Below are positions 38,741 to 63,461 of a stretch of 64,000 nucleotides of DNA, one piece after another (positions within the stretch are counted from its first letter, which is position 1; each line of letters begins with the position of its first letter). Where the stretch lies: positions 148,487,173-148,551,172 of the forward strand of contig CM054116.1 in assembly GCA_028673005.1 (NCBI GenBank). The letters are read 5' to 3'. The position numbers were made by a program, and so were the translations under genes. Under the pieces are notes generated by a model that had not been told where the DNA came from, did no database searches, and worked only from the letters and a program-made list of their open reading frames with translations. Source of the DNA: Tanypteryx hageni. Taxonomy: Eukaryota > Arthropoda > Insecta > Odonata > Petaluridae.

Positions 38741-38783
38741 GACAGACAGACAGACAGACAAACGACTTTATTAGGGCGAAATG
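38741..38783 (-). repeat. Degenerate family B LINE 3' tail at the left edge of the array
   Basis: (GACA)n then AACGACTTTATTAGGGCGAA and ATGTGAG, a diverged form of the tail seen at 38939, 39159, 40640 and 62579. The minisatellite begins directly after it. Confidence 0.75.
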
Positions 38784-38938
38784 TGAGGGAGGACTGGAGG
38801 GAGAGAGGACGGGAGGGAGGACGGGAGGGAGGACGGGAGGGAGGGAGGACGGGAGGGAGGGAGGGAGTACGGGAGGGAGGGAGGACGGGATGGAGGGAGG
38901 ACGGGAGGGTGGGAGGACTGGAGGGAGGGAGGACGGGA

Positions 38939-39004
38939 TAGATAGATAATCGTCTTTATTCGGGCGAAATTTAGACCAGAAGGTCCATTCTTACATTTAG
39001 GGTA
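38939..39004 (-). repeat. LINE family B 3' tail embedded in the array, copy 1
   Basis: GATAGATAGATAATCG, then TTTATTCGGGCGAAATTTAG and CATTCTTACATTTAGGG. It is preceded by GGGTGGGAGGACTGGAGGGA, as are the next two copies. Confidence 0.95.
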
Positions 39005-39158
39005 GGGAGGGAGGACGGGAGGGAGGGAGGACGGGAGGGAGGGAGGACGGGAGGGAGGGAGGACGGGAGGGAGGGAGGACGGGAGGGAGGACGGGCGGGA
39101 GGGAGTACGGGAGGGAGGGAGGACGGGAGGGTGGGAGGACTGGAGGGAGGGAGGACGG

Positions 39159-39226
39159 GATAGATAGATAATCGTCTTTATTCGGGCGAAATTTAGACCA
39201 GAAGGTCCATTCTTACATTTAGGGTA
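39159..39226 (-). repeat. LINE family B 3' tail embedded in the array, copy 2
   Basis: Essentially identical to the copy 220 bp upstream, including the minisatellite variant on its left and the TTTAGGGTAGGGAGG junction on its right. A product of tandem duplication. Confidence 0.95.
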
Positions 39227-40639
39227 GGGAGGGAGGACGGGAGGGAGGGAGGACGGGAGGGAGGGAGAACGGGAGGGAGGGAGGACGGGAGGGAGGACGG
39301 GCGGGAGGGAGTACGGGAGGGAGGGAGGACGGGAGGGAGGGAGGACGGGCGGGAGGGATTACGGGAGGGAGGGAGGACGGGAGGGAGGGAGGACAGGAGT
39401 GAGGGAGGACGGGAGGGAGGGAGTACGGGAGGGAGGGAGGACGGGAGGGAGGGAGGACGGGCGGGAGGGAGGACGGGAGGGAGGGAGGACGGGAGGGAGG
39501 ACGGGAGTGAGGGAGGACGGGAGGGAGGGAGGACGGGAGGGAGGACGGGAGTGAGGGAGGACGGGAGGAGGGAGGACGGGAGGGAGGGAGGACGGGAGGG
39601 AGGACGGGAGGGAGGGAGGACGGGAGTGAGGGAGGACGGGAGGGAGGACGGGAGGGAGGGAGGACGGGAGGGAGGGAGGACGGGAGGGAGGGAGGACGGG
39701 CGGGAGGGAGGACGGGAGGGAGGGAGGACGGGAGTGAGGGAGGACGGGAGGGAGGGAGTACGGGAGGGAGGGAGGACGGGAGGGAGGGAGGACGGGCGGG
39801 AGGGAGGACGGGAGGGAGGGAGGACGGGAGTGAGGGAGGACGGGAGGGAGGACGGGAGGGAGGGAGGACGGGAGGGAGGGAGGACGGGAGTGAGGGAGGA
39901 AGGGAGGGAGGGAGTACGGGAGGGAGGGAGGACGGGAGGGAGGGAGGACGGGCGGGAGGGAGGACGGGAGGGAGGGAGGACGGGAGTGAGGGAGGACGGG
40001 AGGGAGGACGGGAGGGAGGGAGGACGGGAGGGAGGGAGGACGGGAGTGAGGGAGGACGGGAGGGAGGGAGGACGGGAGGGAGGGAGGACGGGAGGGAGGA
40101 CGGGAGTGAGGGAGGACGGGAGGGAGTACGGGAGGGAGGGAGGACGGGAGGGAGGGAGGACGGGCGGGAGGGAGGACGGGAGGGAGGGATGACGGGAGGG
40201 ATTGAGGACGGGAGGGAGGGAGGGAGTACGGGAGGGAGGGAGGACGGGAGGGAGGGAGTACGGGAGGGAGGGAGGACGGGCGGGAGGGAGTACGGGAGGG
40301 AGGGAGGACGGGAGGGAGGGAGAACGGGAGTGAGGGAGGACGGGAGGGAGGGAGTACGGGAGGGAGGGAGGACGGGAGGGAGGGAGGACGGGCGGGAGGG
40401 AGGACGGGAGGGAGGGAGGACGGGAGTGTGGGAGGACGGGAGGGAGGGAGGACGGGAGGGAGGGAGGACGGGAGGGAGGGAGGACGGGAGGGAGGGAGGA
40501 CGGGAGGGAGGACGGGAGGGAGGGAGGACGGGAGGGAGGGAGGACGGGAGGGAGGGAGGACGGGAGGGAGGACGGGCGGGAGGGAGTACGGGAGGGAGGG
40601 AGGACGGGAGGGTGGGAGGACTGGAGGGAGGGAGGACGG

Positions 40640-40708
40640 GATAGATAGATAATCGTCTTTATTCGGGCGAAATTTAGACCAGAAGGTCCATTCTTACATT
40701 TAGGGTAG
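40640..40708 (-). repeat. LINE family B 3' tail embedded in the array, copy 3
   Basis: Same left and right junctions as the tail at 39159, displaced by about 1481 bp. The following array sequence (40710-40880) parallels 39227-39400, confirming a duplication of about 1.48 kb. Confidence 0.95.
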
Positions 40709-43700
40709 GGAGGGAGGACGGGAGGGAGGGAGGACGGGAGGGAGGGAGGACGGGAGGGAGGGAGGACGGGAGGGAGGACGGGCGGGAGGGAGTACGGGAG
40801 GGAGGGAGGACGGGAGGGAGGGAGGACGGGCGGGAGGGATTACGGGAGGGAGGGGGACGGGAGGGAGGGAGGACAGGAGTGAGGGAGGACGGGAGGGAGG
40901 GAGTACGGGAGGGAGGGAGGACGGGAGGGAGGGAGGACGGGCGGGAGGGAGGACGGGAGGGAGGGAGGACGGGAGGGAGGACGGGAGTGAGGGAGGACGG
41001 GAGGGAGGGAGGACGGGAGGGAGGACGGGAGTGAGGGAGGACGGGAGGGAGGGAGGACGGGAGGGAGGGAGGACGGGAGGGAGGACGGGAGGGAGGGAGG
41101 ACGGGAGTGAGGGAGGACGGGAGGGAGGACGGGAGGGAGGGAGGACGGGAGGGAGGGAGGACGGGAGGGAGGGAGGACGGGCGGGAGGGAGGACGGGAGG
41201 GAGGGAGGACGGGAGTGAGGGAGGACGGGAGGGAGGGAGTACGGGAGGGAGGGAGGACGGGAGGGAGGGAGGACGGGCGGGAGGGAGGACGGGAGGGAGG
41301 GAGGACGGGAGTGAGGGAGGACGGGAGGGAGGACGGGAGGGAGGGAGGACGGGAGGGAGGGAGGACGGGAGTGAGGGAGGAAGGGAGGGAGGGAGTACGG
41401 GAGGGAGGGAGGACGGGAGGGAGGGAGGACGGGCGGGAGGGAGGACGGGAGGGAGGGAGGACGGGAGTGAGGGAGGACGGGAGGGAGGACGGGAGGGAGG
41501 ACGGGAGGGAGGGAGGACGGGAGGGAGGGAGGACGGGAGTGAGGGAGGACGGGAGGGAGGGAGGACGGGAGGGAGGGAGGACGGGAGGGAGGACGGGAGT
41601 GAGGGAGGACGGGAGGGAGTACGGGAGGGAGGGAGGACGGGAGGGAGGGAGGACGGGCGGGAGGGAGGACGGGAGGGAGGGATGACGGGAGGGATTGAGG
41701 ACGGGAGGGAGGGAGGGAGTACGGGAGGGAGGGAGGACGGGAGGGAGGGAGTACGGGAGGGAGGGAGGACGGGCGGGAGGGAGTACGGGAGGGAGGGAGG
41801 ACGGGAGGGAGGGAGAACGGGAGTGAGGGAGGACGGGAGGGAGGGAGTACGGGAGGGAGGGAGGACGGGAGGGAGGGAGGACGGGCGGGAGGGAGGACGG
41901 GAGGGAGGGAGGACGGGAGTGTGGGAGGACGGGAGGGAGGGAGGACGGGAGGGAGGGAGGACGGGAGGGAGGGAGGACGGGAGGGAGGACGGGAGGGAGG
42001 GAGGACGGGAGGGAGGGAGGACGGGAGGGAGGGAGGGAGGACGGGAGGGAGGGAGGACGGGAGGGAGGACGGGAGTGAGGGAGGACGGGAGGGAGTACGG
42101 GAGGGAGGGAGGACGGGAGGGAGGGAGGACGGGCGGGAGGGAGTACGGGAGGGAGGGAGGACGGGAGGGAGGGAGGACGGGAGTGAGGGAGGACGGGAGG
42201 GAGGGAGGACGGGAGGGAGGGAGGACGGGAGGGAGGGAGGACGGGAGGGAGGACGGGAGTGAGGGAGGACGGAAGGGAGGGAGGACGGGAGGGAGGGAGG
42301 ACGGGAGGGAGGGAGGACGGGCGGGAGGGAGGACGGGAGGGAGGGAGGACGGGAGTGAGGGAGGACGGGAGGGAGGACGGGAGGGAGGGAGGGAGTACGA
42401 GAGGGAGGGAGGACGGGATGGAGGGAGGACGGGAGGGTGGGAGGACAGGAGGGAGGGAGGACGGGAGGGAGGACGGGAGGGAGGGAGGACGGGAGGGAGG
42501 GAGGACGGGAGGGAGGGAGGGAGTACGGGAGGGAGGGAGGACGGGAGGGAGGGAGGACGGGAGGGAGGGAGGACGGGAGGGTGGGAGGACTAGAGGGAGG
42601 GAGGACGGGAGGGAGGGAGGACGGGAGGGAGGGAGGACGGGAGGGTGGGTGGACTGGAGGAAGGGGGGACGGGAGGGCGGGAGGACGGGCGGGAGGGAGG
42701 ACGGGAGTGAGGGAGGACGGGAGGGAGGGAGGACGGGAGGGAGGGAGGACGGGAGGGAGGACGGGAGGGAGGGAGGACGGGAGGGAGGGAGGACGGGAGG
42801 GAGGGAGGACGGGAGGAAGGGAGGACGGGAGGGAGGGAGGACGGGAGGGAGGACGGGAGTGAGGGAGGACGGGAGGGAGGGAGGACGGGAGGGAGGACGG
42901 GAGTGAGGGAGGACGGGAGGGAGGGAGGACGGGAGGGAGGGAGGACGGGAGGGAGGACGGGAGGGAGGGAGGACGGGAGTGAGGGAGGACGGGAGGGAGG
43001 ACGGGAGGGAGGGAGGACGGGAGGGAGGGAGGACGGGAGGGAGGACGGGCGGGAGGGAGGATGGGAGGGAGGGAGGACGGGAGTGAGGGAGGACGGGAGG
43101 GAGGGAGGACGGGAGGGAGGGAGTACGGGAGGGAGGGAGGACGGGAGGGAGGGAGGACGGGCGGGAGGGAGGACGGGAGGGAGGGAGGGAGTACGGGAGG
43201 GAGGGAGGACGGGATGGAGGGAGGACGGGAGGGTGGGAGGACTGGAGGGAGGGAGGACGGGAGGGTGGGAGGACGGGAGGGAGGGAGGGAGTACGGGAGG
43301 GAGGGAGGACGGGATGGAGGGAGGACGGGAGGGTGAGAGGACTGGAGGGAGGGAGGACGGGAGGGAGGGAGGACGGGAGGGAGGGAGGACGGGAGGGAGG
43401 GAGGGAGGACGGGAGGGAGGGAGGACGGGAGGGAGGGAGGACGGGAGGGAGGGAGGACGGGAGGGTGGGAGGACTGGAGGGAGGGAGGACGGGAGGGAGG
43501 GAGGACGGGAGGGAGGGAGGACGGGAGGGTGGGTGGACTGGAGGGAGGGAGGACGGGAGGGAGGTGGACTGGAGGGAGGGAGGACGGGAGGGAGGGAGGA
43601 CGGGAGTGAGGGAGGACGGGAGGGAGGGAGGACGGGAGGGAGGGAGGACGGGCGGGAGGGAGGACGGGAGGGAGGGAGGACGGGAGTGAGGGAGGACGGG

Positions 43701-46700
43701 AGGGAGGGAGGACGGGAGGTAGGGAGGACTGGAGGGAGGACGGGAGGGAGGGAGGACGGGAGGGAGGGAGGACGGGAGGGTGGGTGGACTGGAGGGAGGG
43801 AGGACGGGAGGGCGGGAGGACGGGCGGGAGGGAGGACGGGAGTGAGGGAAATCGGGAGGGAGGGAGGACGGGAGGGAGGGAGGACGGGAGGGAGGACGGG
43901 AGGGAGGGAGGACGGGAGGGAGGGAGGACGGGAGGGAGGGAGGACGGGAGGGAGGGAGGACGGGAGGGAGGACGGGAGTGAGGGAGGACGGGAGGGAGGG
44001 AGGACGGGAGGGAGGACGGGAGTGAGGGAGGACGGGAGGGAGGGAGGACGGGAGGGAGGGAGGACGGGAGGGAGGACGGGAGGGAGGGAGGACGGGAGTG
44101 AGGGAGGACGGGAGGGAGGACGGGAGGGAGGGAGGACGGGAGGGAGGGAGGACGGGAGGGAGGGAGGACGGGCGGGAGGGGAGGACGGGAGGGAGGGAGG
44201 ACGGGAGGGAGGGAGGACGATAGTGAGGGAGGACGGGAGGGAGGGAGGACGGGAGGGAGGGAGGACGGGAGGGTGGGAGGACTGGAGGGAGGGAGGACGG
44301 GAGGGAGGGAGGACGGGAGGGAGGGAGGACGGGAGGGTGGGTGGACTGGAGGGAGGGATGACGGGAGGGAGGGAGGACGGGAGTGAGGGAGGACGGGAGG
44401 GAGGGAGGACGGGAGGGAGGGAGGACGGGCGGGAGGGAGGACGGGAGGTAGGGAGGACGGGAGTGAGGGAGGACGGGAGGGAGGGAGGACGGGAGGTAGG
44501 GAGGACTGGAGGGGAGGACGGGAGGGAGGGAGGACGGGAGGGAGGGAGGACGGGAGGGTGGGTGGACTGGAGGGAGGGAGGGACGGGAGGGCGGGAGGAC
44601 GGGCGGGAGGGAGGACGGGAGTGAGGGAGGACGGGAGGGAGGGAGGACGGGCGGGAGGGAGGACGGGAGGGAGGGAGGACGGGAGTGAGGGAGGACGGGA
44701 GGGAGGACGGGAGGGAGGGAGGACGGGAGGGAGGGAGGACGGGAGTGAGGGAGGAAGGGAGGGAGGGAGTACGGGAGGGAGGGAGGACGGGAGGGAGGGA
44801 GGACGGGCGGGAGGGAGGACGGGAGGGAGGGAGGACGGGAGTGAGGGAGGACGGGAGGGAGGACGGGAGGGAGGACGGGAGGGAGGGAGGACGGGAGGGA
44901 GGGAGGACGGGAGTGAGGGAGGACGGGAGGGAGGGAGGACGGGAGGGAGGGAGGACGGGAGGGAGGACGGGAGTGAGGGAGGACGGGAGGGAGTACGGGA
45001 GGGAGGGAGGACGGGAGGGAGGGAGGACGGGCGGGAGGGGAGGACGGGAGGGAGGGATGACGGGAGGGATTGAGGACGGGAGGGAGGGAGGGAGTACGGG
45101 AGGGAGGGAGGACGGGAGGGAGGGAGTACGGGAGGGAGGGAGGACGGGCGGGAGGGAGTACGGGAGGGAGGGGAGGACGGGAGGGAGGGAGAACGGGAGT
45201 GAGGGAGGACGGGAGGGAGGGAGTACGGGAGGGAGGGAGGACGGGAGGGAGGGAGGAAGGGCGGGAGGGAGGACGGGAGGGAGGGAGGACGGGAGTGTGG
45301 GAGGACGGGAGGGAGGGAGGACGGGAGGGAGGGAGGACGGGAGGGAGGGAGGACGGGAGGGAGGACGGGAGGGAGGGGAGGACGGGAGGGAGGGAGGACG
45401 GGAAGGAGGGAGGGAGGATGGGAGGGAGGGAGGACGGGCGGGAGGGAGTACGGGAGGGAGGGAGGACGGGAGGGAGGGAGGACGGGAGTGAGGGGAGGAC
45501 GGGAGGGAGGGAGGAGACGGGAGGGAGGGAGGACGGGAGGGAGGGAGGACGGGAGGGAGGACGGGAGTGAGGGAGGACGGAAGGGAGGGGAGGGACGGGG
45601 AGGGAGGGAGGACGGGAGGGAGGGAGGACGGGAGGGAGGGAGGACGGGCGGGAGGGAGGACGGGAGGGAGGGAGGACGGGAGTGAGGGAGGACGGGAGGG
45701 AGGACGGGAGGGAGGGAGGGAGTACGAGAGGGAGGGAGGACGGGATGGAGGGAGGACGGGAGGGTGGGAGGACTGGAGGGAGGGAGGACGGGAGGGAGGA
45801 CGGGAGGGAGGGAGGACGGGGAGGGAGGGAGGACGGGAGGGAGGGAGGGAGTACGGGAGGGAGGGAGGACGGGAGGGAGGGAGGACGGGAGGGAGGGAGG
45901 ACGGGGAGGGTGGGAGGACTAGAGGGAGGGAGGACGGGAGGGAGGGAGGACGGGAGGGAGGGAGGACGGGAGGGTGGGTGGACTGGAGGGAGGGAGGACG
46001 GGAGGGCGGGAGGACGGGCGGGAGGGAGGACGGGAGTGAGGGAGGACGGGAGGGAGGGAGGACGGGAGGGAGGGAGGGAGGACGGGAGGGAGGACGGGAG
46101 GGAGGGAGGACGGGAGGGAGGGAGGACGGGAGGGAGGGAGGACGGGAGGAAGGGAGGACGGGAGGGAGGGAGGGAGGACAGGAGGGAGGACGGGAGTGAG
46201 GGAGGACGGGAGGGAGGGAGGACGGGAGGGAGGACGGGAGTGAGGGAGGACGGGAGAGGGGGAGGACGGGAGGGAGGGAGGACGGGAGGGAGGACGGGAG
46301 GGAGGGAGGACGGGAGTGAGGGAGGACGGGAGGGAGGACGGGAGGGAGGGAGGACGGGAGGGAGGGAGGACGGGAGGGAGGACGGGCGGGAGGGAGGACG
46401 GGAGGGAGGGAGGACGGGAGTGAGGGAGGACGGGGAGGGAGGGAGGACGGGAGGGAGGGAGTACGGGAGGGAGGGAGGACGGGAGGGAGGGAGGACGGGC
46501 GGGAGGGAGGACGGGAGGGAGGGAGGGAGTACGGGAGGGAGGGAGGACGGGATGGAGGGAGGACGGGAGGGTGGGAGGACTGGAGGGAGGGAGGACGGGA
46601 GGGAGGGAGGACGGGAGGGAGGGAGGGAGTACGGGAGGGAGGGAGGACGGGATGGAGGGAGGACGGGAGGGTGAGAGGACTGGAGGGAGGGAGGACGGGA

Positions 46701-49700
46701 GGGAGGGAGGACGGGAGGGAGGGAGGACGGGAGGGAGGGAGGGAGGACGGGAGGGAGGGAGGGACGGGAGGGAGGGAGGACGGGAGGGGAGGGAGGACGG
46801 GAGGGTGGGAGGACTGGAGGGAGGGAGGACGGGAGGGAGGGAGGACGGGAGGGAGGGAGGACGGGAGGGTGGGGTGGACTGGAGGGAGGGAGGACGGGAG
46901 GGAGGGAGGACGGGAGTAAGGGAGGACGGGAGGGAGGGAGGACGGGAGGGAGGGAGGACGGGCGGGAGGGAGGACGGGAGGGAGGGAGGACGGGAGTGAG
47001 GGAGGACGGGAGGGAGGGGAGGACGGGAGGTAGGGAGGACTGGAGGGAGGACGGGAGTGAGGGAGGACGGGAGGGAGGGAGGACGGGAGGGTGGGTGGAC
47101 TGGAGGGAGGGGAGGACGGGAGGGCGGGAGGACGGGCGGGAGGGAGGACGGGAGTGAGGGAAGACGGGAGGGAGGGAGGACGGGAGGGAGGGAGGACGGG
47201 AGGGAGGACGGGAAGGAGGGAGGACGGGAGGGAGGGAGGACGGGAGGGAGGGAGGACGGGAGGGAGGGAGGACGGGAGGGAGGGAGGACGGGAGGGAGGG
47301 AGGACGGGAGGGAGGACGGGAGTGAGGGAGGACGGGAGGGAGGGAGGACGGGAGGGAGGACGGGAGTGAGGGAGGACGGGAGGGAGGGAGGACGGGAGGG
47401 AGGGAGGACGGGAGGGAGGACGGGAGGGAGGGAGGACGGGAGTGAGGGAGGACGGGAGGGAGGAAGGGAGGGAGGGAGGACGGGAAGGAGGGAGGACGGG
47501 AGGGAGGGAGGACGGGCGGGAGGGAGGACGGGAGGGAGGGAGGACGGGAGGGAGGGAGGACGATAGTGAGGGAGGACGGGAGGGAGGGAGTACGGAAGGG
47601 AGGGAGGACGGGAGGGAGGGAGGACGGGAGGGAGGACGGGAGGGAGGGAGGACGGGAGGGAGGGAGGACGGGAGAGAGGGAGGACGGGCGGGAGGGAGGA
47701 CGGGAGGGAGGGAGGGAGTACGGGAGGGAGGGAGGACGGGATGGAGGGAGGACGGGGAGGGTGGGAGGACTGGAGGGAGGGAGGACGGGAGGGAGGGGAG
47801 GACGGGAGGGAGGGGAGGACGGGAGGGAGGGAGGGAGTACGGGAGGGAGGGAGGACGGGAGGGAGGGAGGACGGGAGGGAGGGAGGACGGGAGGGTGGGG
47901 AGGACTGGAGGGAGGGAGGACGGGAGGGAGGGAGGACGGGAGGGAGGGAGGACGGGAGGGTGGGTGGACTGGAGGGAGGGAGGACGGGAGGGCGGGAGGA
48001 CGGGCGGGAGGGAGGACGGGAGTGAGGGAGGACGGGAGGGAGGGAGGACGGGAGGGAGGGAGGACGGGAGGGAGGGAGGACGGGAGGGAGGGAGGACGGG
48101 AGGGAGGACGGGAGGGAGGGAGGACGGGAGGGAGGGAGGACGGGAGGGAGGGAGGACGGGAGGGAGGACAGGAGTGAGGGAGGACGGGAGGGAGGGAGGA
48201 CGGGAGGGAGGACGGGAGTGAGGGAGGACGGGAGGGAGGGAGGACGGGAGGGAGGGAGGACGGGAGGGAGGACGGGAGGGAGGGAGGACGGGAGTGAGGG
48301 AGGACGGGAAGGAGGACGGGAGGGAGGGAGGACGTGAGGGAGGGAGGACGGGAGGGAGGGAGGACGGGCGGGAGGGAGGACGGGAGTGAGGGAGGACGGG
48401 AGGGAGGGAGTACGGGAGGGAGGGAGGACGGGAGGGAGGGAGGACGGGCGGGAGGTAGGACGGGAGGGAGGGGAGGACGGGAGTGAGGGAGGACGGGAGG
48501 GAGGACGGGAGGGAGGGGAGGACGGGAGGGAGGGAGGACGGGAGTGAGGGAGGACGGGAGGGAGGGAGGACGGGAGGGAGGGAGGACGGGAGGGAGGACG
48601 GGAGTGAGGGAGGACGGGAGGGAGGGAGGACGGGAGGGAGGGAGGACGGGAGGGAGGACGGGAGGGAGGGAGGACGGGAGGGAGGGAGGACGGGAGGGAG
48701 GGAAGGAGTACGGGAGGGAGGGAGGACGGGCGGGAGGGAGGACGGGAGGGAGGGAGGACGGGAGGGAGGGAGGACGGGCGGGAGGGAGTACGGGAGGGAG
48801 TTAGGACGGGAGGGAGGGAGGACGGGAGTGAGGGAGGACGGGAGGGAGGGAGAACGGGAGGGAAAGAGGACGGGAGGGAGGGAGGACGGGCGGGAGGGAG
48901 GACGGGAGGGAGGGAGGACGGGAGTGAGGGAGGACGGGAGGGAGGGAGGACGGAAGGGAGGGAGGACGGGAGGGAGGGAGGACGGGAGGGAGGGAGGACG
49001 GGAGGGAGGGAGGACGGGAGGGAGGGAGGGAGGACGGGAGGGAGGGAGGACGGGAGGGAGGGAGGACGGGAGGGAGGGAGGACGGGAGGGTGGGAGGACT
49101 GGAGGGGAGGGAGGACGGGAGGGAGGGAGGACGGGAGGGAGGGAGGACGGGAGGGTGGGTGGACTGGAGGGAGGGGAGGACGGGAGGGAGGGAGGACGGG
49201 AGTGAGGGAGGACGGGAGGGAGGGAGGACGGGAGGGAGGGAGGACGGGCGGGAGGGAGGACGGGAGGGGAGGGAGGACGGAAGTGAGGGAGGACGGGAGG
49301 GAGGGGAGGACGGGAGGTAGGGAGGACTGGAGGGAGGACGGGAGGGAGGGGAGGACGGGAGGGAGGGAGGACGGGAGGGTGGGTGGACTGGAGGGAGGGA
49401 GGACGGGAGGGCGGGAGGGACGGGCGGGAGGGGAGGACGGGAGTGAGGGAAGACGGGAGGGAGGGAGGACGGGAGGGAGGGAGGACGGGAGGGAGGACGG
49501 GAGGGAGGGAGAACGGGAGGGAGGGAGGACGGGAGGGAGGGAGGACGGGAGGAAGGGAGGACAGGAGGGAGGGAGGACGGGAGGGAGGACGGGAGTGAGG
49601 GAGGGACAGGAGGGAGGGAGGACGGGAGGGAGGACGGGAGTGAGGGAGGACGGGAGGGAGGGAGGACGGGAGGGAGGGAGGACGGGAGGGAGGACGGGAG

Positions 49701-52700
49701 GGAGGGAGGACGGGAGTGAGGGAGGACGGGAGGGAGGACGGGAGGGAGGGAGGACGGGAGGGAGGGAGGACGGGAGGGAGGGAGGACGGGCGGGAGGGAG
49801 GACGGGAGGGAGGGAGGACGGGAGGGAGGGAGGACGATAGTGAGGGAGGACGGGAGGGAGGGAGTACGGAAGGGAGGGAGGACGGGAGGGAGGGAGGACG
49901 GGAGGGAGGACGGGAGGGAGGGAGGACGGGAGGGAGGGAGGACGGGAGAGAGGGGAGGACGGGCGGGAGGGAGGACGGGAGGGAGGGAGGGAGTACGGGA
50001 GGGAGGGAGGACGGGATGGAGGGAGGACGGGAGGGTGGGAGGACTCGGGAGGGAGGGAGGACGGGAGGGAGGGAGGACGGGAGGGGAGGGAGGGGAGTAC
50101 GGGAGGGGAGGGAGGACGGGAGGGAGGGAGGGACGGGAGGGAGGGAGGACGGGAGGGGTGGGAGGACTGGAGGAGGGGAGGACGGGAGGGAGGGAGGACG
50201 GGAGGGAGGGAGGACGGGAGGGTGGGTGGACTGGAGGGAGGGAGGACTAGAGGGCGGGAGGACGGGCGGGAGGGAGGACGGGAGTGAGGGAGGACGGGAG
50301 GGAGGGAGGGACGGGAGGGAGGGAGGACGGGAGGGGGAGGACGGGGAGGGAGGGGAGGACGGGAGGGAGGGGAGGACGGGAGGGAGGGAGGACGGGAGGG
50401 AGGGAGGACGGGAGGGAGGACAGGAGTGAGGGAGGACGGGAGGGAGGGAGGACGGGAGGGAGGACGGGAGTGAGGGAGGACGGGAGGGAGGGAGGACGGG
50501 AGGGAGGGAGGACGGGAGGGGAGGGAGGACGGGAGGGAGGGAGGACGGGAGGGAGGACGGGAGGGAGGACGGGGAGGGGAGGGAGGACGGGAGGTGAGGG
50601 GAGGACGGGAGGGAGGACGGGAGGGAGGGAGGACGTGAGGGAGGGAGGGACGGGAGGGAGGGAGGACGGGCGGGAGGGAGGACGGGAGGGAGGGAGGACG
50701 GGAGTGAGGGAGGACGGGAGGGAGGGAGGACGGGAGTGAGGGAGGACGGGAGGGAGGGAGTACGGGAGGGAGGGAGGACGGGAGGGAGGGAGGACGGGCG
50801 GGAGGTAGGACGGGAGGGAGGGAGGACGGGAGTGAGGGAGGACGGGAGGGAGGACGGGAGGGAGGGAGGACGGGAGGGAGGGAGGACGGGAGTGAGGGAG
50901 GACGGGAGGGAGGGAGGACGGGAGGGAGGGAGGACGGGGAGGGGGAGGACGGGAGTGAGGGAGGACGGGGAGGGAGGGAGGACGGGAGGGAGGGAGGACG
51001 GGAGGGAGGACGGGAGGGAGGGAGGACGGGAGGGAGGGAGGACGGGAGGGAGGGAAGGAGTACGGGAGGGAGGGAGGACGGGCGGGAGGGAGGACGGGAG
51101 GGAGGGAGGACGGGAGGGATGGAGGACGGGCGGGAGGGAGTACGGGAGGGAGTTAGAACGGGAGGGAGGGAGGACGGGAGTGAGGGAGGACGGGAGGGAG
51201 GGAGTACGGGAGGGAGGGAGGACGGGAGGGAGGGAGGACGGGCGGGAGGGTGGACGGGAGGGAGGGAGGACGGGAGTGAGGGAGGACGGGAGGGAGGTAG
51301 GACGGAAGGGAGGGAGGACGGGAGGGAGGGAGGACGGGAGGGAGGGAGGACGGGAGGGATGGAGGACGGGAGGGAGGGAGGGAGTACGGGAGGGAGGGAG
51401 GACGGGAGGGAGGGAGGACGGGCGGGAGGGAGTACGGGAGGGAGGGAGGGAGGACGGGCGGGAGGGAGTACGGGAGGGAGGGGAGGACGGGAGGGAGGGA
51501 GGACGGGAGGGAGGGAGGACGGGAGGGAGGACGGAAGGGAGGGAGGACGGGCGGGAGGGGAGTACGGAGGGAGGGAGGACGGGAGGGAGGGAGGACGGGC
51601 GGGAGGGAGTACGGGAGAGAGGGAGGACGGGAGGGAGGGAGGACGGGAGTGAGGGAGGACGGGAGGGAGGGAGTACGGGAGGGAGGGATGACGGGGAGGG
51701 AGGGAGGACGGGCGGGAGGGAGGACGGGAGGGAGGGAGGACGGGTGTGAGGGAGGACGGGGAGGGAGGGAGTACGGGAGGGAGGGAGGACGGGAGGGAGG
51801 GAGGACGGGAGGGAGGGAGGACGGGAGTGAGGGAGGACGGGCGGGAGGGAGGACGGGAGGGAGGGAGGACGGGAGTGAGGGAGGACGGGGAGGGAGGGAG
51901 GACGGGAGTGAGGGAGGACGGGAGGGAGGGAGTACGGGAGGGAGGGGAGGACGGGAGGGAGGGAGGACGGGAGGGGAGGGAGGACGGGAGGGAGGGAGGA
52001 TGGGAGGGAGGACGGGTGTGAGGGAGGACGGGAGGGAGGGAGGACGGGAGGGAGGGAGGACGGGAGGGAGGGAGGACGGGAGGGAGGACGGGAGGGAGGG
52101 AGGACGGGAGTGAGGGAGGACGGGAGGTAGGACGGGAGGGAGGGAGGACGGGAGGGAGGGAGGGACGGGAGGGAGGGAGGACGGGCGGGAGGGAGGACGG
52201 GAGGGGAAGGAGGACGGGAGGGAGGGAGGACGGGAGGGAGGGAGGACGGGAGTGAGGGAGGACGGGAGGGAGGGAGTACGGGAGGGAGGGAGGACGGGAG
52301 GGAGGGAGGACGGGCGGGAGGGAGGACGGGAGGGAGGGAGAACGGGAGTGAGGGAGGACGGGAGGGAGGGAGGACGGGAGTGAGGGAGGGACGGGAGGGA
52401 GGGAGGACGGGAGGGAGGGAGGACGGGAGGGAGGGAGGACGGGAGGGAGGGAGGACGGGAGGGGAGGACGGGAGTGAGGGAGGACGGAAGGGAGGGAGGA
52501 CGGGAGGGAGGGAGGACGGGAGGAAGGACGGGAGGGAGGGAGGGACGGGAGGGAGGGAGGACGGGAGGTAGGGAGGGAGTACGGGAGGGAGGGAGGACGG
52601 GAGGGAGGGTGGGACGGTCGGGAGGGAGGACGGGGAGGGAGGGAGGACGGGGAGGAAGGGAGGACGGGAGTGAGGGAGTACGGGAGGGAGGGAGGAGACG

Positions 52701-55700
52701 GGAGGGAGGGAGGACGGGCGGGAGGGAGGACGGGAGGGAGGGAGGACGGGGAGTGAGGGAGGACGGGAGGGAGGGAGGACGGGAGGGAGGGAGGACGGGA
52801 GTGAGGGGAGGACGGGAGGGAGGGAGTACGGGAGGGAGGGAGGACGGGAGGGAGGAGTACGGGAGGGAGGGAGGGACGGGAGTGAGGGAGGACGGGAGGG
52901 AGGGAGTACGGGAGGGAGGGAGGACGGGAGTGAGGGAGGACTGGAGGGAGGGAGGACGGGAGGGAGGGAGTACGGGAGGGAGGACGGGAGGGAGGGGAGG
53001 ACGGGAGGGAGGGAGGACGGGAGGGAGGGGAGGACGAGAGGGAGGACGGGAGGGATGGAGGACGGGAGTGAGGGAGGACGGGAGTGAGGAAGGACGGGAG
53101 AGAGGGAGGACGGGAGGGAGGGAGGACGGGGAGTGTGGGAGGACGGGAGGGAGGGAGGACGGGAGTGAGGGAGGACGGTAGGGAGGGAGTACGGGAGGGA
53201 GGGAGGAAGGGAGGGAGTACGGGAGGGAGGGAGGACGGGAGTGAGGGGAGGACGGGAGGGGAGGGAGTACGGGAGGGAGAGAGGACGGGAGGGAGGGAGG
53301 ACGGGAGTGAGGGAGGACGGGAGGGAGGGAGGACGGGAGGGAGGGAGGACGGGAGGGGAGGACGGGAGTGAGGGAGGACGGGAGAGAGGGAGGACGGGAG
53401 GGAGGGAGGACGGGAGTGTGGGAGGACGGGAGGGAGGGAGGACGGGGAGTGAGGGAGGACGGTAGGGAGGGAGTACGGGAGGGAGGGAGGAAGGAAGGGA
53501 GGACGGGAGTGAGGGAGGACGGGAGTGAGGGGAGGACGGGAGGGAGGGAGTACGGAAGGGAGAGAGGACGGGAGGGAGGGAGGACGGGAGTGAGGGAGGA
53601 CGGGAGGGAGGGAGGACGGGATGGAGGGAGGACGGGAGGGAGGACGGGAGGAGGCAGGACGGGAGGGGAGGGAGGACGGGAGGGAGGGAGGACGGGAGGG
53701 AGGTAGGACGGGAGTGAGGGGAGGACGGGAGGGATGGAGGACGGGAGGGAGGACGGGAGGGAGGGAGGACGGGAGTGAGGGAGGACGGGAGGGAGGGAGG
53801 ACGGGAGTGAGGGAGGACGGGAGGAGGGAGTACGGGAGGGAGGGAGGACGGGAGGGAGGGAGGACGGGCGGGAGGAAGGACGGGAGTGAGGGAGGGACGG
53901 GAGGGAGGGAGGACGGGAGGGGAGGACGGGAGTGAGGGAGGACGGGAGGGAGGGAGGACGGGAGTGAGGGAGGACGGGAGGGATGGAGGACGGGAGGGAG
54001 GGAGGACGGGCGGGAGGGAGGACGGGAGGGAGGGAGGACGGGAGGGAGGGAGTACGGGAGGGAGGGAGGACGGGCGGGAGGGGAGTACGGGAGGGAGGGA
54101 GGACGGGAGGGAGGGAGAACGGGAGTGAGGGAGGACGGGAGGGAGGGAGTACGGGAGGGAGGGTGGACGGGAGGGAGGGAGGACGGGCGGGAGGGGAGGA
54201 CGGGTGGGAGGGAGGGACGGGAGTGTGGGAGGACGGGAGGGGAGGGAGGACGGGAGGGAGGGAGGACGGGAGGGAGGGAGGACGGGAGGGAGGACGGAGG
54301 GGAGGGAGGACGGGAGGGAGGGAGGACGGGAGGGAGGGAGGGAGGACGGGAGGGAGGGAGGACGGGCGGGGAGGGAGTACGGAGGGAGGGAGGACGGGAG
54401 GGAGGGAGGACGGGAGTGAGGGAGGACGGGAGGGAGGGGAGGACGGGAGGGAGGGAGGACGGGAGGGAGGGAGGACGGGAGGGAGGACGGGAGTGAGGGA
54501 GGGACGGAAGGGAGGGAGGACGGGAGGGAGGGAGGACGGGAGGGAGGGAGGACGGGCGGGAGGGAGGACGGGAGGGAGGGAGGACGGGAGTGAGGGAGGA
54601 CGGGAGGGAGGACGGGGAGGGAGGGAGGGAGTACGAGAGGGAGGGAGGGACGGGATGGAGGGAGGACGGGAGGGTGGGAGGACTGGAGGGAGGGAGGACG
54701 GGAGGGAGGACGGGAGGGAGGGAGGACGGGAGGGAGGGAGGACGGAGGGAGGGAGGGAGTACGGGAGGGAGGGGGAGGGACGGGGAGGGAGGGGAGGACG
54801 GGAGGGAGGGAGGACGGGAGGGTGGGAGGACTAGAGGAGGGAGGACGGGGAGGGAGGGAGGACAGGAGGGAGGGAGGACGGGAGGGTGGGTGGACTGGAG
54901 GGAGGGAGGACGGGAGGGCGGGAGGACGGGCGGGAGGGAGGACGGGAGTGAGGGAGGACGGGAGGGAGGGAGGACGGGAGGGAGGGAGGGACGGGAGGGA
55001 GGACGGGAGGGAGGGAGGACGGGAGGGAGGGAGGACGGAGGGAGGGAGGACGGGAGGAAGGGGAGGACGGGAGGGAGGGAGGACGGGAGGGAGGACGGGA
55101 GTGAGGGAGGACGGGAGGGAGGGGAGGGACGGGAGGGAGGACGGGAGTGAGGGAGGACGGGAGGGAGGGAGGACGGGAGGGAGGGAGGACGGGAGGGAGG
55201 ACGGGAGGGAGGGAGGACGGGAGTGAGGGAGGACGGGAGGGAGGACGGGAGGGAGGGAGGACGGGAGGGAGGGAGGACGGGAGGGAGGACGGGCGGGAGG
55301 GAGGACGGAGGGAGGGGAGGACGGGAGGGAGGGAGGACGGGAGGGAGGGAGGACGGGAGGGAGGGAGTACGGGAGGGAGGGAGGACGGGAGGGAGGGAGG
55401 GAGTACGGGAGGGAGGGAGGACGGGATGGAGGGAGGACGGGAGGGGTGGGAGGACTGGAGGGAGGGAGGACGGGAGGGAGGGAGGACGGGAGGGAGGGAG
55501 GGAGTACGGGAGGGAGGGAGGACGGGATGGAGGGAGGGACGGGAGGGTGAGAGGACTGGAGGGAGGGAGGACGGGAGGGAGGGAGGACGGGAGGGAGGGA
55601 GGACGGGAGGGAGGGAGGACGGGAGGGAGGACGGGAGTGAGGGAGGACGGAAGGGAGGGAGGACGGGAGGGAGGGAGGACTGGAGGGAGGGAGGACGGGA

Positions 55701-58700
55701 GGGAGGGAGGACGGGAGGGAGGGAGGACGGGAGGGTGGGTGGACTGGAGGGAGGGAGGACGGGAGGGAGGGAGGACGGGAGTGAGGGAGGACGGGCGGTG
55801 AGGGAGGACGGGAGGGAGGGAGGACGGGAGTGAGGGAGGACGGGAGGGAGGGAGGACGGGAGGTAGGGAGGACTGGAGGGGAGGACGGGAGGGAGGGGAG
55901 GACGGGACTGAGGGAGGACGGGACGGTGGGTGGGACTGGAGGGAGGGAGGACGGGGAGGGCGGGAGGACGGGCGGGAGGGAGGACGGGAGTGAGGGAAGA
56001 CGGGAGGGAGGGAGGACGGGAGGGAGGGAGGACGGGAGGGAGGACGGGAGGGAGGGAGGACGGGAGGGAGGGGAGGACGGGAGGGAGGGAGGACGGGAGG
56101 GAGGGAGGACGGGAGGGAGGACGGGACGGTGAGGGAGGACGGGAGGGAGGGAGGAGGGGAGGGAGGACGGGAGTGAGGGAGGACGGGGAGGGAGGGAGGA
56201 CGGGAGGGAGGGAGGACGGGAGGGAGGACGGGAGGGAGGGAGGACGGGAGTGAGGGAGGACGGGAGGGGAGGACGGGAGGGAGGGAGGACGGGAGGGAGG
56301 GAGGACGGGAGGGAGGGAGGACGGGCGGGAGGGAGGACGGGAGGGAGGGGAGGACGGGAGGGGAGGGAGGACGATAGTGAGGGAGGACGGGAGGGAGGGT
56401 GTACGGAAGGGAGGGAGGACGGGGAGGGAGGGAGGGACGGGAGGGAGGACGGGAGGGAGGGAGGACGGGGAGGGAGGGAGGACGGGAGAGAGGGAGGACG
56501 GGCGGGAGGGAGGACGGGAGGGGAGGGAGATAGTACGGGAGGGAGGGAGGACGGGATGGAGGGAGGACGGGAGGGTGGGAGGACTGGAGGGAGGGGAGGA
56601 CGGGAGGGAGGGAGGACGGGAGGGAGGGAGGACGGGAGGGAGGGAGGGAGTACGGGAGGGAGGGAGGACGGGAGGGAGGGAGGACGGGAGGGGAGGGAGG
56701 ACGGAGGGGGTGGAGGACTGGAGGGAGGGAGGACGGGAGGGAGGGAGGACGGGAGGGAGGGAGGACGGGAGGGTGGGTGGACTGGAGGGAGGGAGGACGG
56801 GAGGGAGGGTGGACGGGAGGGAGGGAGGACGGGAGGGAGGACGGGAGGGAGGGAGGACGGGAGTGAGGGAGGACGGGAGGGAGGACGGGAGGGAGGGAGG
56901 ACGTGAGGGAGGGAGGACGGGAGGGAGGGAGGACGGGCGGGAGGGAGGACGGGAGGGAGGGGAGGACGGGAGTGAGGGAGGACGGGAGGGAGGGAGGACG
57001 GGAGTGAGGGAGGACGGGAGGGAGGGGAGTACGGGAGGGAGGGAGGACGGGAGGGAGGGAGGACGGGCGGGAGGTAGGACGGGAGGGAGGGAGGACGGGA
57101 GTGAGGGAGGACGGGAGGGAGGACGGGAGGGAGGGAGGACGGGAGGGAGGGAGGACGGGAGTGAGGGAGGACGGGAGGGAGGGGAGGACGGGAGGGAGGG
57201 AGGACGGGAGGGAGGACGGGGAGTGAGGGAGGACGGGAGGGAGGAGAGGACGGGAGGGAGGGAGGACGGGAGGGAGGACGGGAGGGAGGGAGGGACGGGA
57301 GGGAGGGAGGACGGGAGGGAGGGAAGGAGTACGGGAGGGAGGGGAGGACGGGCGGGAGGGAGTACGGGAGGGAGGGAGGACGGGAGGGAGGGAGGACGGG
57401 CGGGAGGGAGTACGGGAGGGAGGGAGGACGGGAGGGAGGGAGGACGGGAGTGAGGGAGGACGGGAGGGAGGGAGTACGGGAGGGAGGGAGGACGGGAGGG
57501 AGGGGAGGACGGGCGGGAGGGAGGACGGGAGGGAGGGAGGACGGGCGGGAGGGAGTACGGGAGGGAGGGAGGACGGGAGGGAGGGAGGACGGGAGGGAGG
57601 GAGGACGGGAGGGAGGACGGAAGGGAGGGAGGACGGGCGGGAGGGAGTACGGAGGGAGGGAGGACGGGGAGGGAGGGAGGACGGGCGGGAGGGAGTACGG
57701 GAGAGATGGAGGACGGGAGAGATGGAGGACGGGAGGGGAGGGAGGACGGGAGGGAGGGAGGACGGGAGGGAGGGAGGACGGGAGGGAGGACGGGAGTGAG
57801 GGAGGACGGGAGGGAGGGAGGACGGGAGGGAGGGAGGACGGGAGGGAGGGAGGACGGGAGGGAGGACGGGAGGGAGGGAGGACGGGGAGTGAGGGAGGAC
57901 GGGAGGTAGGACGGGAGGGAGGGAGGACGGGAGGGAGGGAGGACGGGCGGGAGGGAGGACGGGAGGGAGGGAGGACGGGAGGGAGGGAGGACGGGAGGGA
58001 GGGAGGACGGGGAGTGAGGGAGGACGGGAGGGAGGGGAGTACGGGGAGGGAGGGAGGACGGGGAGGGAGGGAGGACGGGCGGGAGGGAGGACGGGAGGGA
58101 GGGAGAACGGGAGTGAGGGAGGACGGGAGGGAGGGAGGACGGGAGTGAGGGAGGACGGGAGGGAGGGAGGACGGGAGGGGAGGGAGGACGGGAGGGAGGG
58201 AGGACGGGAGGGTGGGTGGACTGGAGGGAGGGAGGACGGGAGGGAGGGAGGACGGGAGTGAGGGAGGACGGGCGGGAGGGAGGACGGGAGGGAGGGAGGA
58301 CGGGAGTGAGGGAGGACGGGGAGGGAGGGAGGACGGGAGGTAGGGAGGACTGGAGGGAGGACGGGGAGGGAGGGAGGACGGGACTGAGGGAGGACGGGAC
58401 GGTGGGTGGACTGGAGGGAGGGAGGACGGGAGGGGCGGGAGGACGGGCGGGAGGGAGGACGGGAGTGAGGGAAGACGGGAGGGAGGGAGGACGGGAGGGA
58501 GGGAGGGAGGGAGGACGGGAGGGAGGGACGGAGGAGGGAGGGAGGACGGGAGGGAGGGAGGACGGGAGGGAGGGAGGACGGGAGGGAGGGAGGACGGGAG
58601 GGAGGACGGGAGTGAGGGAGGGACGGGAGGGAGGGAGGACGGGAGGTGAGGAGGACGGGAGGGAGGGGAGGACGGGAGGGGAGGGAGGACGGGAGGGAGG

Positions 58701-61700
58701 ACGGGAGTGAGGGAGGACGGGAGGGAGGGAGGACGGGAGGGAGGGGAGGACGAGAGGGAGGACGGGAGGGATGGAGGACGGGTGTGAGGGAGGACGGGAG
58801 GGAGGGAGGACGGGAGTGAGGGAGGACGGTAGGGAGGGAGTACGGGAGGGAGGGAGGACGGGAGTGAGGGAGGACGGGAGGGAGGGAGTACGGGAGGGAG
58901 GGGAGGACGGGAGGGAGGGAGGACGGGCGGGAGGGAGGACGGGAGGGAGGGAGGACGGGAGCGAGGGGAGGACGGGAGGGGAGGGAGGACGGGATGGAGG
59001 GAGGACGGGAGTGAGGGAGGACGGGAGGGGAGGGAGGACGGGAGTGAGGGGAGGACGGGAGGGAGGGAGGACGGGAGGGAGGGAGGACGGGATTGAGGGA
59101 GGACGGGAGGGAGGGAATACGGGAGGGAGGACGGGAGGGGAGGGAGTACGGGAGGGAGGGAGGACGGGAGGGAGGACGGGAGTGAGGGAGGACGGGAGGG
59201 AGGGAGGACGGGAGGGAGGGAGGACGGGAGGGAGGGAGGACGGGAGGGAGGGAGGACGAGAGGGGAGGGAGGACGGGAGGGAGGGAGGACGGGAGTGAGG
59301 GAGGACGGGAGGGAGGGAGTACGGGAGGGAGGAGGAGGACGGGAGGGAGGGAGGACGGGCGGGAGGGAGTACGGGAGGGAGGGAGGGACGGGAGTGAGGG
59401 AGGACGGGAGAGAGGAGGGAGGACGGGGAGGGAGGGGAGGGACGGGAGTTTGGGAGGACGGACGGGAGGGAGGGAGGACGGGAGTGAGGGAGGACGGGAG
59501 GGAGGGAGTACGGGAGGGAGAGAGGACGGGAGGGAGGGAGGACGGGAGTGAGGGAGGACGGGAGGGAGGGAGGACGGGAGGGAGGGAGGACGGGAGGGAG
59601 GACGGGTGTGAGGGAGGACGGTGAGAGAGGGAGGACGGGAGGGAGGGAGGACGGGAGTGTGGGAGGACGGGAGGGAGGGAGGACGGGAGTGAGGGAGGAC
59701 GGTAGGGAGGGAGTACGGGAGGGAGGGAGGAAGGGAGGGAGTACGGGAGGGAGGGAGGACGGGAGTGAGGGAGGACGGGAGGGAGGGAGTACGGGAGGGA
59801 GAGAGGTCGGGAGGGAGGGAGGACGGGAGTGAGGGAGGACGGGAGGGAGGGAGGGACGGGAGGGAGGGGAGGACGGGAGGGAGGACGGGAGGGAGGGAGG
59901 ACGGGAGGGAGGGAGGACGGGAGTGAGGGAGGACGGGAGGGATGTAGGACGGGAGTGAGGGAGGACGGGAGGGAGGAGGACGGGAGGGAGGACGGGAGGG
60001 AGGGAGGACGGGAGTGAGGGAGGACGGGAGGGAGGGAGGACGGGATTGAGGGAGGACGGGAGGGAGGGAGTACGGGAGGGAGGGAGGACGGGAGGAGGGA
60101 GGACGGGCGGGAGGAAGGACGGGAGTGAGGGAGGACGGGAGGGAGGGAGGACGGGAGGGAGGACGGGAGTGAGGGAGGACGGGAGGGAGGGAGGACGGGA
60201 GTGAGGGAGGACGGGAGGGAGGGAGGACGGGAGGGAGGGAGGACGGGCGGGAGGGAGGACGGGAGTGAGGGAGGACGGGAGTGAGGGAGGACGGGAGTGA
60301 GGGAGGACGGGAGGGAGGGAGGACGGGAGGGAGGGAGGACGGGAGGGAGGACGGGAGGGAGGACGGGAGGGAGGGAGGACGGGAGTGAGGGAGGACGGGA
60401 GGGAGGACGGGTGGGAGGGAGGACGGGAGGGAGGGAGGACGGGAGGGAGGGAGGACGGGCGGGAGGGAGGACGGGAGGGAGGGAGGACGGGAGGGAGGGA
60501 GGACGATAGTGAGGGAGGACGGGAGGGAGGGAGTACGGAAGGGAGGGAGGACGGTAGGGAGGGAGGACGGGAGGGAGGACGGAGGGAGGGAGGACGGGAG
60601 GGAGGGAGGACGGGAGGGAGGAGGACGGGCGGGAGGGAGGACGAGAGGGAGGGAGGACGGGAGGGAGGGAGGACGGGAGGGAGGGAAGACGGGAGTGAGG
60701 GAGGACGGGAGGGAGGGAGTACGGAAGGGAGGGAGGACGGGAGGGAGGGAGGACGGGCGGGAGGGAGGACGGGAGTGAGGGGAGGACGGGAGGGAGGACG
60801 GGAGGGAGGGAGGACGGGAGGGAGGGAGGACGTGAGGGAGGGAGGACGGGAGGGAGGGAGGACGGGAGGGAGGACGGGAGTGAGGGAGGACGGAAGGGAG
60901 GGAGGACGGGAGGGAGGGAGGACGGGAGGGAGGACGGGAGGGAGGGAGGACGGGAGGGAGGGAGGACGGGAGGGAGGGAGGGAGTACGGGAGGGAGGGAG
61001 GACGGGAGGGAGGGAGGACGGGAGGGAGGACGGGAGGGAGGGAGGACGGGTGTGAGGGAGGACGGGAGGAGGACGGGAGGGAGGTGAGGACGGGAGGGAG
61101 GGAGGACGGGAGGGAGGGAGGACGGGCGGGAGGGAGGACGGGAGGGAGGGAGGACGGGAGGGAGGGAGGACGGGAGGGAGGGAGGACGGGAGTGAGGGAG
61201 GACGGGAGGGAGGGAGTACGGAAGGGAGGGAGGACGGGAGGGAGGGAGGACGGGCGGGAGGGAGGACGGGAGGGAGGGAGGACGGGAGTGAGGGAGGACG
61301 GGAGGGAGGACGGGAGGGAGGGAGGACGGGAGGGAGGGAGGACGGGAGGGAGGGAGGACGGGAGGGAGGGAGGACGGGAGGGAGGACGGGAGTGAGGGAG
61401 GACGGAAGGGAGGGAGGACGGGAGGGAGGGAGGACGGTAGGGAGGACGGGAGGGAGGGAGGACGGGAGGGAGGGAGGACGGGAGGGAGGGAGGGAGTACG
61501 GGAGGGAGGGAGGACGGGAGGGAGGGAGGACGGGAATGAGGGAGGACGGGAGGGAGGGAGGACGGGAGTGAGGGAGGACGGGAGGGAGAGAGTACTGGAG
61601 GGAGGGAGGACGGGAGGGAGGGAGGACGGGCGGGAGGGAGGACGGGAGGGAGGGAGGACGGGAGTGAGGGAGGACGGGAGGGAGGGAGGACGGGATGGAG

Positions 61701-62460
61701 GGAGGACGGGATGAGAGGGAGGACGGGAGGGAGGGAGGACGGGAGTGAGGGAGGACGGTAGGGAGGGAGTACGGGAGGGAGGGAGGACGGGAGTGAGGGA
61801 GGACGGGAGGGAGGGAGGACGGGCGGGAGGGAGGACGGGAGGGAGGGAGGACGGGAGCGAGGGAGGACGGGAGGGGAGGGAGGACGGGATGGAGGGAGGA
61901 CGGGAGTGAGGGAGGACGGGAGGGAGGGAGGACGGGAGTGGAGAGGTGGAGGGAGGACGGGAGGGAGGGAGGACGGGATGGAGAGGAGAGGAGTACGGGA
62001 GGGAGGGAGGACGGGAGTGAGGGAGGACGGGAGGGAGGGAGTACGGGAGGGAGGGAGGACGGGAGGGAGGGAGGACGGGAGTGAGGGAGGACGGGAGGGA
62101 GGGAGGACGGGAGGGAGGGAGGACGGGAGGGAGGACGGGAGGGAGGGAGGACGGGAGTGAGGGAGGACGGGAGGGAGGGAGGACGGGAGGGAGGACGGGA
62201 GTGAGGGAGGACGGGGAGGGAGGGAGGGACGGGAGGGAGGGAGGACGGGAGGGAGGACGGGAGGGAGTACGGGAGGGAGGGAGGACGGGAGGGAGGGGAG
62301 GACGGGAGGGAGGGGGACGGGAGGGTGGGAGGACTGGAGGGAGGGAGGACGGGAGGGAGGGAGGACGGGAGGGAGGGAGGACGGGAGGGTGGGTGGACTG
62401 GAGGGAGGGAGGACGGGAGGGCGGGAGGACGGGCGGGAGGGAGGACGGGAGTGAGGGAAA

Positions 62461-63335: not shown

Positions 63336-63461
63336 ATACATATAAACAATACACAAAATATATAAAAACAATACAAAATTATATTAAGAAATAGAAAATA
63401 ATATAAGACAATACAAAAAAAACATGAGTAAGGATAATTTATGGGGAGTGTAAAGAGATGA

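What the first reader, a model, noticed from the sequence alone, without database searches (positions are those of the whole stretch)
38784..62460. 24-kb strand-asymmetric, G-quadruplex-capable minisatellite
The unit GGGAGGGAGGAC puts four G-triplets within 19 bp (GGGAGGGAGGACGGGAGGG), so overlapping quadruplex motifs occur almost continuously for nearly 24 kb on one strand, with T nearly absent from it. Such length and asymmetry would be expected to challenge replication and could act as a fragile or recombination-prone site, or a protein-binding satellite. I know of no named system with this unit.
Basis: partly seen in the sequence, partly recalled or inferred. Interest (0 to 1): 0.75.

Follow-up and report, generated by a model that had tools for sequence, protein, structure and literature searches.

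The report
Overgrown purine repeat inside a transposon
A 24,000-base stretch made almost only of G and A in an animal genome looks like the overgrown inner repeat of one mobile element, into which a second kind of mobile element that favours such stretches has inserted; how it arose is of a known kind, its size is unusual.

Summary
The array is real (38784-62578), but its main unit is 16 bp, (GGGA)3-GGAC, not 12 bp: 1006 of 1404 units are 16-mers, 132 are 12-mers. G-quadruplex motifs cover 78% of one strand and are absent from the other; folding is untested. The genome is a 1.68-Gb assembly; the array lies 1.3 Mb from the end of contig C5. It occupies the purine-rich domain of a dispersed non-coding element (TE X, Helitron/HINE-like in layout, membership unproven): left modules at 37178-37531 and 38396-38708, right module just beyond the window; another copy carries about 480 bp of the same 16-mer. 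A LINE ending at 62579 inserted into existing purine repeat at the right edge, leaving an exact 35-bp duplication. That LINE family favours purine tracts on one strand: 20 of 36 tail-side flanks are at least 75% purine, none at most 25%, against 37 and 31 of 1980 background windows. Growth was by 4-bp steps and kb-scale duplication. Extra single Gs, concentrated in the interior, suggest consensus errors there. Verdict: a transposon-seeded minisatellite, a new member of a known kind.

The parts
37178..37531 (+). Left module A of the dispersed element TE X
   Evidence: Matches L014 (89.0%), L049 (80.6%), L048, L018, L038, L034, L035, L047, L008, L007 and, over 87 bp, L051
37532..38395 (.). Stretch that splits modules A and B; its parts 37747-38154 match other dispersed repeats
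   Evidence: A and B are adjacent in L048, L049, L018 and L014; this stretch matches L044, L035, L045 instead
38396..38708 (+). Middle module B of TE X, running into its degenerate purine-rich domain
   Evidence: Matches L018 (86%), L048, L049, L014; purine fraction of 38600-38745 is 0.66
38744..38782 (-). Partial 3' end of a variant LINE with a (GACA)n-type tail, at the left border of the array
   Evidence: 17-base match with one mismatch at 38766-38782; sequence; L049 holds a similar end
38784..62578 (+). The array: 16-bp unit GGGAGGGAGGGAGGAC with 12- and 20-bp variants; the last 120 bp or so are a variant repeat GGGAGGGAGATAGGGAGAGAGGGAGGAT
   Evidence: TRF, unit split, sequence
38938..38999 (-). 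Short LINE 3' end inside the array (copy 1)
   Evidence: 54 of 54 bases identical to the LINE end at 62597-62650
39160..39221 (-). Short LINE 3' end inside the array (copy 2)
   Evidence: Same junctions as copy 1
40641..40702 (-). Short LINE 3' end inside the array (copy 3)
   Evidence: Same junctions as copies 1 and 2; about 1481 bp from copy 2
39021..42120 (+). Tandem duplication inside the array, offset about 1481 bp
   Evidence: 97.8% identity, one substitution in 1622 columns; exact stretches of 508 and 453 bp
40900..47400 (+). Duplicated block inside the array, offset about 3.35 kb
   Evidence: 94.4% identity over 3150 columns
62544..62578 (+). Target-site duplication of the LINE; second copy outside the window at L050:4266-4300
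   Evidence: 35 identical bases
62579..64000 (-). 3' part of a LINE: (GATA)n-type tail, 3' end, 3'UTR and end of ORF2 (63462-63998); it continues to L050:4265
   Evidence: ORFs; endonuclease and RVT_1 domains in the L050 part

Best explanation
The array is the overgrown purine-rich inner domain of a dispersed non-coding transposable element (TE X, Helitron/HINE-like in layout). Shown: TE X modules flank the array in the order and orientation seen in other copies, and a second locus has about 480 bp of the same 16-mer between TE X modules. Shown: a LINE with both ORFs inserted into existing purine repeat at the right edge, and short LINE ends lie in the left 2 kb. Inferred: a short GGGA-type tract in TE X expanded by 4-bp slippage and then by unequal exchange or a similar process copying 1.5-3.4 kb blocks, perhaps helped by quadruplex formation on one strand. 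Inferred: these LINEs land in such tracts because a nicked purine strand can anneal to the (UAUC)n end of the LINE RNA and prime reverse transcription. No host function is needed; the strand asymmetry is inherited from the seed tract.
For: TE X flanks: L051 right flank matches L050:4310-4406 at 88.7%, its left flank matches window 37204-37290 at 83.9%; modules A and B precede a purine-rich stretch (purine 0.82-0.87 just after B) in L018, L049 and L014, and such a stretch precedes the right module in L048 (0.74), L038 (0.87) and L035 (0.88). LINE after purine repeat: 35-bp exact duplication. LINE preference: 20 of 36 tail-side flanks at least 75% purine and 0 at most 25%, background 37 and 31 of 1980, binomial P 2.8e-26; 13 of 18 short copies have at least 70% purine on both sides. 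Growth: unit lengths in 4-bp steps, kb duplications, 20 shared unit runs against none in five shuffles.
Against: The window locus and L050/L051 belong to a 3' subtype without the palindrome seen in other copies; scanning for perfect hairpins before CTAGT gave 23 hits in real and 23 in shuffled sequence, and no sub-terminal inverted repeat was found, so the Helitron reading is weak. Only two loci with the same unit between TE X modules were read (window, L051). The 35-bp duplication is of the right-edge variant repeat, so it does not prove that 24 kb of 16-mer existed when the LINE arrived, and in a repeat such identity could be an old tandem copy. In L008 the stretch between A and the right module is not purine-rich (0.39-0.72). 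The LINE sample is 36 of the 40 best hits listed, all on one contig. 16 of 36 LINE ends are not in purine-rich flanks by the 75% mark.
Confidence: 0.68

Rival explanations
1. The array grew out of the LINE's own (GATA)n 3' tail: slippage extended the tail, which then mutated to GGGA-type repeats.
For: The array meets the LINE tail in the same 4-bp register; some LINE copies have long (GA)n runs next to the tail (L055, L058); LINE tails are known to slip (PMC3747384, passages).
Against: The 35-bp duplication on the far side of the LINE; purine repeat on both sides of 13 of 18 short LINE copies; L051 has the 16-mer with no LINE end in the 884 bp read.
Confidence: 0.12
2. The length is largely an assembly product: a shorter array inflated or misjoined.
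For: Extra-G indels rise towards the interior: 13 of 13 one-base gaps in the 40900-44000 / 44250-47400 pair are an extra G in the interior copy; G4+ runs per kb 0.4 at the left, 10.1 inside, 2.4 at the right, 0 in two short arrays.
Against: Substitution variants stay roughly even (0.37-0.71 per 16-mer) and interior blocks are related but not identical (89-91%), which a simple stutter would not give; both edges join coherent flanks.
Confidence: 0.12
3. The array is a functional satellite (chromatin, replication or subtelomeric role) kept by selection for its G-rich strand.
For: Length, strand asymmetry, mean G4Hunter score 1.75, 1.3 Mb from a contig end.
Against: Of 260 exact unit dimers in the genome (read-backwards control 1) 212 are in this window, so it is close to a single locus; the features seen are accounted for by transposons. 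No function could be tested.
Confidence: 0.05

Closest known systems
Non-autonomous Helentrons with central repeats (Cg_HINE of oyster, PMC7492417; DINE-1/HINE, PMC4067079; passages read)
   Same: A dispersed non-coding element with a left module, a 4-nt-based simple-repeat or tandem-repeat domain and a right module; arrays proposed as seeds of satellites (PMC12628747, passages)
   Different: Here the inner domain is one-strand purine, the array is about 24 kb (the longest oyster array reported in the passages has 29.3 monomers), and palindrome and sub-terminal repeats were not established for this copy
LINEs that target microsatellites (e.g. Togen into (TG)n and some HERO families, PMC4640811, passages; Kibi, Koshi and Waldo are recalled, not read)
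   Same: LINE 3' junctions concentrated in simple-repeat tracts of one orientation
   Different: Preference, not strict: 20 of 36 flanks; targets are varied purine repeats rather than one motif; an Exo_endo_phos-type endonuclease here
Minisatellites grown from transposable elements (e.g. (GGCAGA)n from SINE B1, (CGGGAGGC)n from Alu; PMC6947457, passages)
   Same: Tandem array expanded from a motif inside an element
   Different: Host element, unit and length
UnaL2-type LINE tails (PMC3747384, passages)
   Same: 3' end with short tandem repeats instead of poly(A)
   Different: Tail is TATC; the 3' structure was not more stable than shuffles

Membership tests
HINE / Helitron-like element (for TE X) | Left module - simple or tandem repeat - right module, in constant order | tested here: met
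   A before the right module in L048, L038, L051, L008 and window+L050; purine-rich stretch between them in four of these five, not in L008
HINE / Helitron-like element (for TE X) | Fixed 3' end CTRR or similar, followed by T | tested here: met
   CTAG then T in L035 (first of two ends), L008, L048, L050, L051; L038 CTAG then T; L035's second end reads GTAG: six of seven
HINE / Helitron-like element (for TE X) | Palindrome near the 3' end | tested here: inconclusive
   Imperfect CCCGTCATATTTGACGGG-like palindrome in five ends, absent from L050/L051; perfect-stem scan 23 real, 23 shuffled
HINE / Helitron-like element (for TE X) | Sub-terminal inverted repeats | tested here: inconclusive
   None convincing in six pairwise comparisons; the 5' end is not fixed
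HINE / Helitron-like element (for TE X) | Rep/helicase-coding partner in the genome | not tested
   The one search sent did not complete
Microsatellite-targeting LINE | Endonuclease and reverse transcriptase ORF | tested here: met
   RVT_1 E 6.4e-37, Exo_endo_phos_2 and Exo_endo_phos in L050:2-2926
Microsatellite-targeting LINE | Insertions concentrated in a given repeat class | tested here: met
   20 of 36 against 37 of 1980 background windows
Microsatellite-targeting LINE | Strict target specificity | tested here: not met
   16 of 36 tail-side flanks are below 75% purine, e.g. L010, L022, L026
Minisatellite or satellite array | Head-to-tail repeats with array-internal duplications | tested here: met
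G-quadruplex-forming DNA | Motif G3+N1-7 four times | tested here: met
   912 motifs in the array; shuffles average 434
G-quadruplex-forming DNA | Folds in solution or in cells | not testable with these tools
   No biophysical data

The most novel reading that the evidence does not exclude
A self-reinforcing cycle of two selfish elements: TE X spreads purine tracts; LINEs ending in (UAUC)n choose targets by pairing the RNA end with a nicked purine strand, and leave either long copies or a discrete mini-retroposon of about 60 bases plus tail, cut at a nearly fixed point; purine tracts hit in this way can run away to tens of kilobases.
Probability: 0.27. Interest if true: 0.6.

Novelty: new member of a known kind. 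Interest (0 to 1): 0.4.

Why it matters
It turns an odd G-rich satellite into a case with a readable history: seed element, expansion steps and later insertions. A LINE family with 2302 exact copies of its 3'-end 26-mer in one genome and a one-strand purine preference would be a clear test of how a LINE's tail helps to choose its target. It also warns that interior letters of long G-rich arrays in assemblies can carry consensus errors.

Tried and rejected
Array as coding sequence: the long + strand ORFs of the GREDGREGG type follow from the scarcity of T; a search with an idealised peptide of that kind gave 17 weak hits among 7994 scored candidates. The one match in the collection of bacterial and archaeal genomes, L001, is a run of two and a half units in a GC-rich metagenome bin, taken as chance; viral contigs gave none for the unit or the LINE end. 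Stable RNA structure at the LINE 3' end: minimum energy no better than shuffles (z 0.10, 92 of 200 as good). Protein search with the end of the LINE ORF: two weak hits, no taxon. The organism was not identified. A single higher-order period: none stands out (best non-modal unit match 7.8% at any lag up to 999; shuffles, lags up to 399, reach 6.1%). Sub-terminal inverted repeats and perfect terminal hairpins of TE X: not found. Paper searches; I recognised no paper on a purine-preferring LINE of this type among the titles and abstract starts listed, which is not proof that none exists.

Full report
What is there. TRF finds one array at 38785-62581, period 16. Splitting 38784-62460 after AC gives 1404 units: 1006 of 16 bp, 132 of 12 bp, 31 of 20 bp; the commonest is GGGAGGGAGGGAGGAC, 566 times. 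T is 631 of 23677 bases. G-quadruplex motifs: 912 non-overlapping on +, none on -; 20 base shuffles average 434.

Internal structure. Exact repeats of 508, 453 and 417 bp occur at offsets of 1493, 1481 and 3374 bp. The 1481-bp duplication has one substitution in 1622 columns (97.8% identity with gaps); a block at about 3.35 kb offset is 94.4% identical; blocks compared deeper in the array are 89-91% identical. In unit space there are 20 shared runs of at least 10 units with at least 5 non-modal units, against none in five shuffles; no single higher-order period stands out. The array thus grew in 4-bp steps and by kilobase duplications, some of them recent.

Reliability of the letters. Units whose length is not a multiple of four number 0-4 in each of the first six 1-kb bins (some of these are the LINE-containing units), 4 to 16 per bin from 44.8 to 59.8 kb, then 7, 3 and 7 in the last three (the last bin is short); substitutions per 16-mer range from 0.37 to 0.71 without such a trend. 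In the pair 40900-44000 / 44250-47400 there are 13 one-base gaps, each an extra G in the interior copy and none in the left copy. In a pair lying wholly inside, they are 16 to 14, 29 of 30 being G. Pairs at the clean left end also show a few one-base gaps (4 in one, 3 in another). Runs of four or more Gs: 0.4, 4.7, 10.1, 5.5 and 2.4 per kb from left to right, none in the short arrays L051 and L052. I read this as homopolymer consensus error in the interior; a true gain of Gs cannot be excluded.

Where it lies. The window is G000:C5:148487173-148551172 in an assembly of 1678174424 bases and 1022 contigs; C5 has 149849934 bases, so the array ends 1.3 Mb from the contig end. The unit dimer has 260 exact matches in the genome (246 + 14; read-backwards control 1), 212 of them in this window. 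Of the other 48, the capped listing shows 17 at seven sites, the largest with 9 dimers at C5:13.876 Mb.

The LINE. The right border is the 3' end of a LINE on the minus strand. It runs on to L050:4265 with an ORF holding endonuclease and reverse transcriptase domains and a 250-aa ORF before it. Thirty-five bases at 62544-62578 recur exactly at L050:4266-4300, on the other side of the LINE: a target-site duplication. It is made of the variant repeat that forms the right edge, so purine repeat was there first, though not necessarily all 24 kb. The LINE end also occurs three times, with the same junctions, within the left 2 kb of the array, in a variant partial form at its left border, and in a second purine minisatellite at 34549-34621.

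A purine-preferring LINE. The 26-base LINE end occurs 1180 + 1122 times, control 0. I read 36 loci, 36 of the 40 best hits listed, all on C1. The 100 bp on the tail side are at least 75% purine in 20 and at most 25% in none; in 20 evenly scattered 10-kb regions the numbers are 37 and 31 of 1980 windows, binomial P 2.8e-26. Eighteen of the 36 are short copies; 13 of these have at least 70% purine on both sides, and L028 shows a 9-bp target duplication. Insertions outside purine tracts exist, for example L010, L022, L023, L026. The purine strand is the strand from which the first cDNA strand would grow. GGGA or GAGA can pair with the UAUC tail at three of four positions if G-U counts; that the tail guides target choice is my inference.

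The host element. Sequence left of the array (37178-37531, 38396-38708) and right of the LINE (L050:4308-4408) belongs to a dispersed non-coding element, TE X. Modules A and B run into a purine-rich stretch in L018, L049 and L014, and a purine-rich stretch precedes the right module in L048, L038 and L035; in L008 the stretch between is not purine-rich. L051 at C5:13.876 Mb has about 480 bp of the same 16-mer between an A-type left flank (83.9% to the window) and a right flank 88.7% identical to L050:4310-4406. Pieces A, B or the right module are in 6 of 20 scattered regions and 4 of 28 three-kb LINE loci. Six of seven 3' ends read CTAG|T; five ends have an imperfect palindrome before it, but not L050 and L051, the subtype that holds the 16-mer. 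A scan for perfect hairpins before CTAGT gave 23 hits in real and 23 in shuffled sequence, and no sub-terminal inverted repeats were found. I call the element Helitron/HINE-like in layout and do not file it as a member.

Comparison with print. Non-autonomous Helentrons carry 4-nt microsatellites and central repeats and are proposed as seeds of satellites (PMC7492417, PMC4067079, PMC12628747; passages). Minisatellites grown from other elements are known (PMC6947457; passages). Microsatellite-targeting LINEs are known (PMC4640811; passages), as are repeat-tailed LINEs that slip (PMC3747384; passages). Unusual here are the size, the one-strand purine make-up and the pairing of two element types.

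Verdict. A transposon-seeded minisatellite of unusual length with LINE insertions; quadruplex biology is possible but untested.

Noticed in passing
LINE 3' ends in L002-L029 and L053-L060: The 36 LINE ends fall into two classes: 18 stop 54-61 bases into the LINE (15 of them at 59-61), none between 62 and 192, and 18 go on to at least base 193 (7 of these limited by the fetched length). A discrete mini-retroposon of about 60 bases plus tail, with a nearly fixed 5' point, would be unusual.
   Followed up: partly
34070-34790: A second purine-rich minisatellite (units of about 16-32 bp) split by a short copy of the same LINE end at 34549-34621; no TE X module was matched beside it.
   Followed up: partly
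L049 (right of module B) and L048: TE X's purine domain also holds ends of a related LINE with (GACA)n-type tail (L049) and two further LINE-end-like pieces (L048).
   Followed up: no
13345-16255 and L023, L038: Dispersed repeat ending TGCTTGCAGTATGCAAGCACCTTCTACTAGTA, present in several nested copies.
   Followed up: no
1-1680, 6668-7039, 24556-31795: Remains of several other elements: Polinton-like polymerase pieces (recalled likeness, no family match for 2-385), a DDE_Tnp_1_7 transposase, two DUF4371 (hAT/ZMYM-like, recalled) ORFs, one of 569 aa.
   Followed up: no
27005-27074: tRNA-Ala-like gene on the minus strand.
   Followed up: no
28973-29347: A 106-bp tandem repeat, 3.5 copies, 98% matches.
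   Followed up: no
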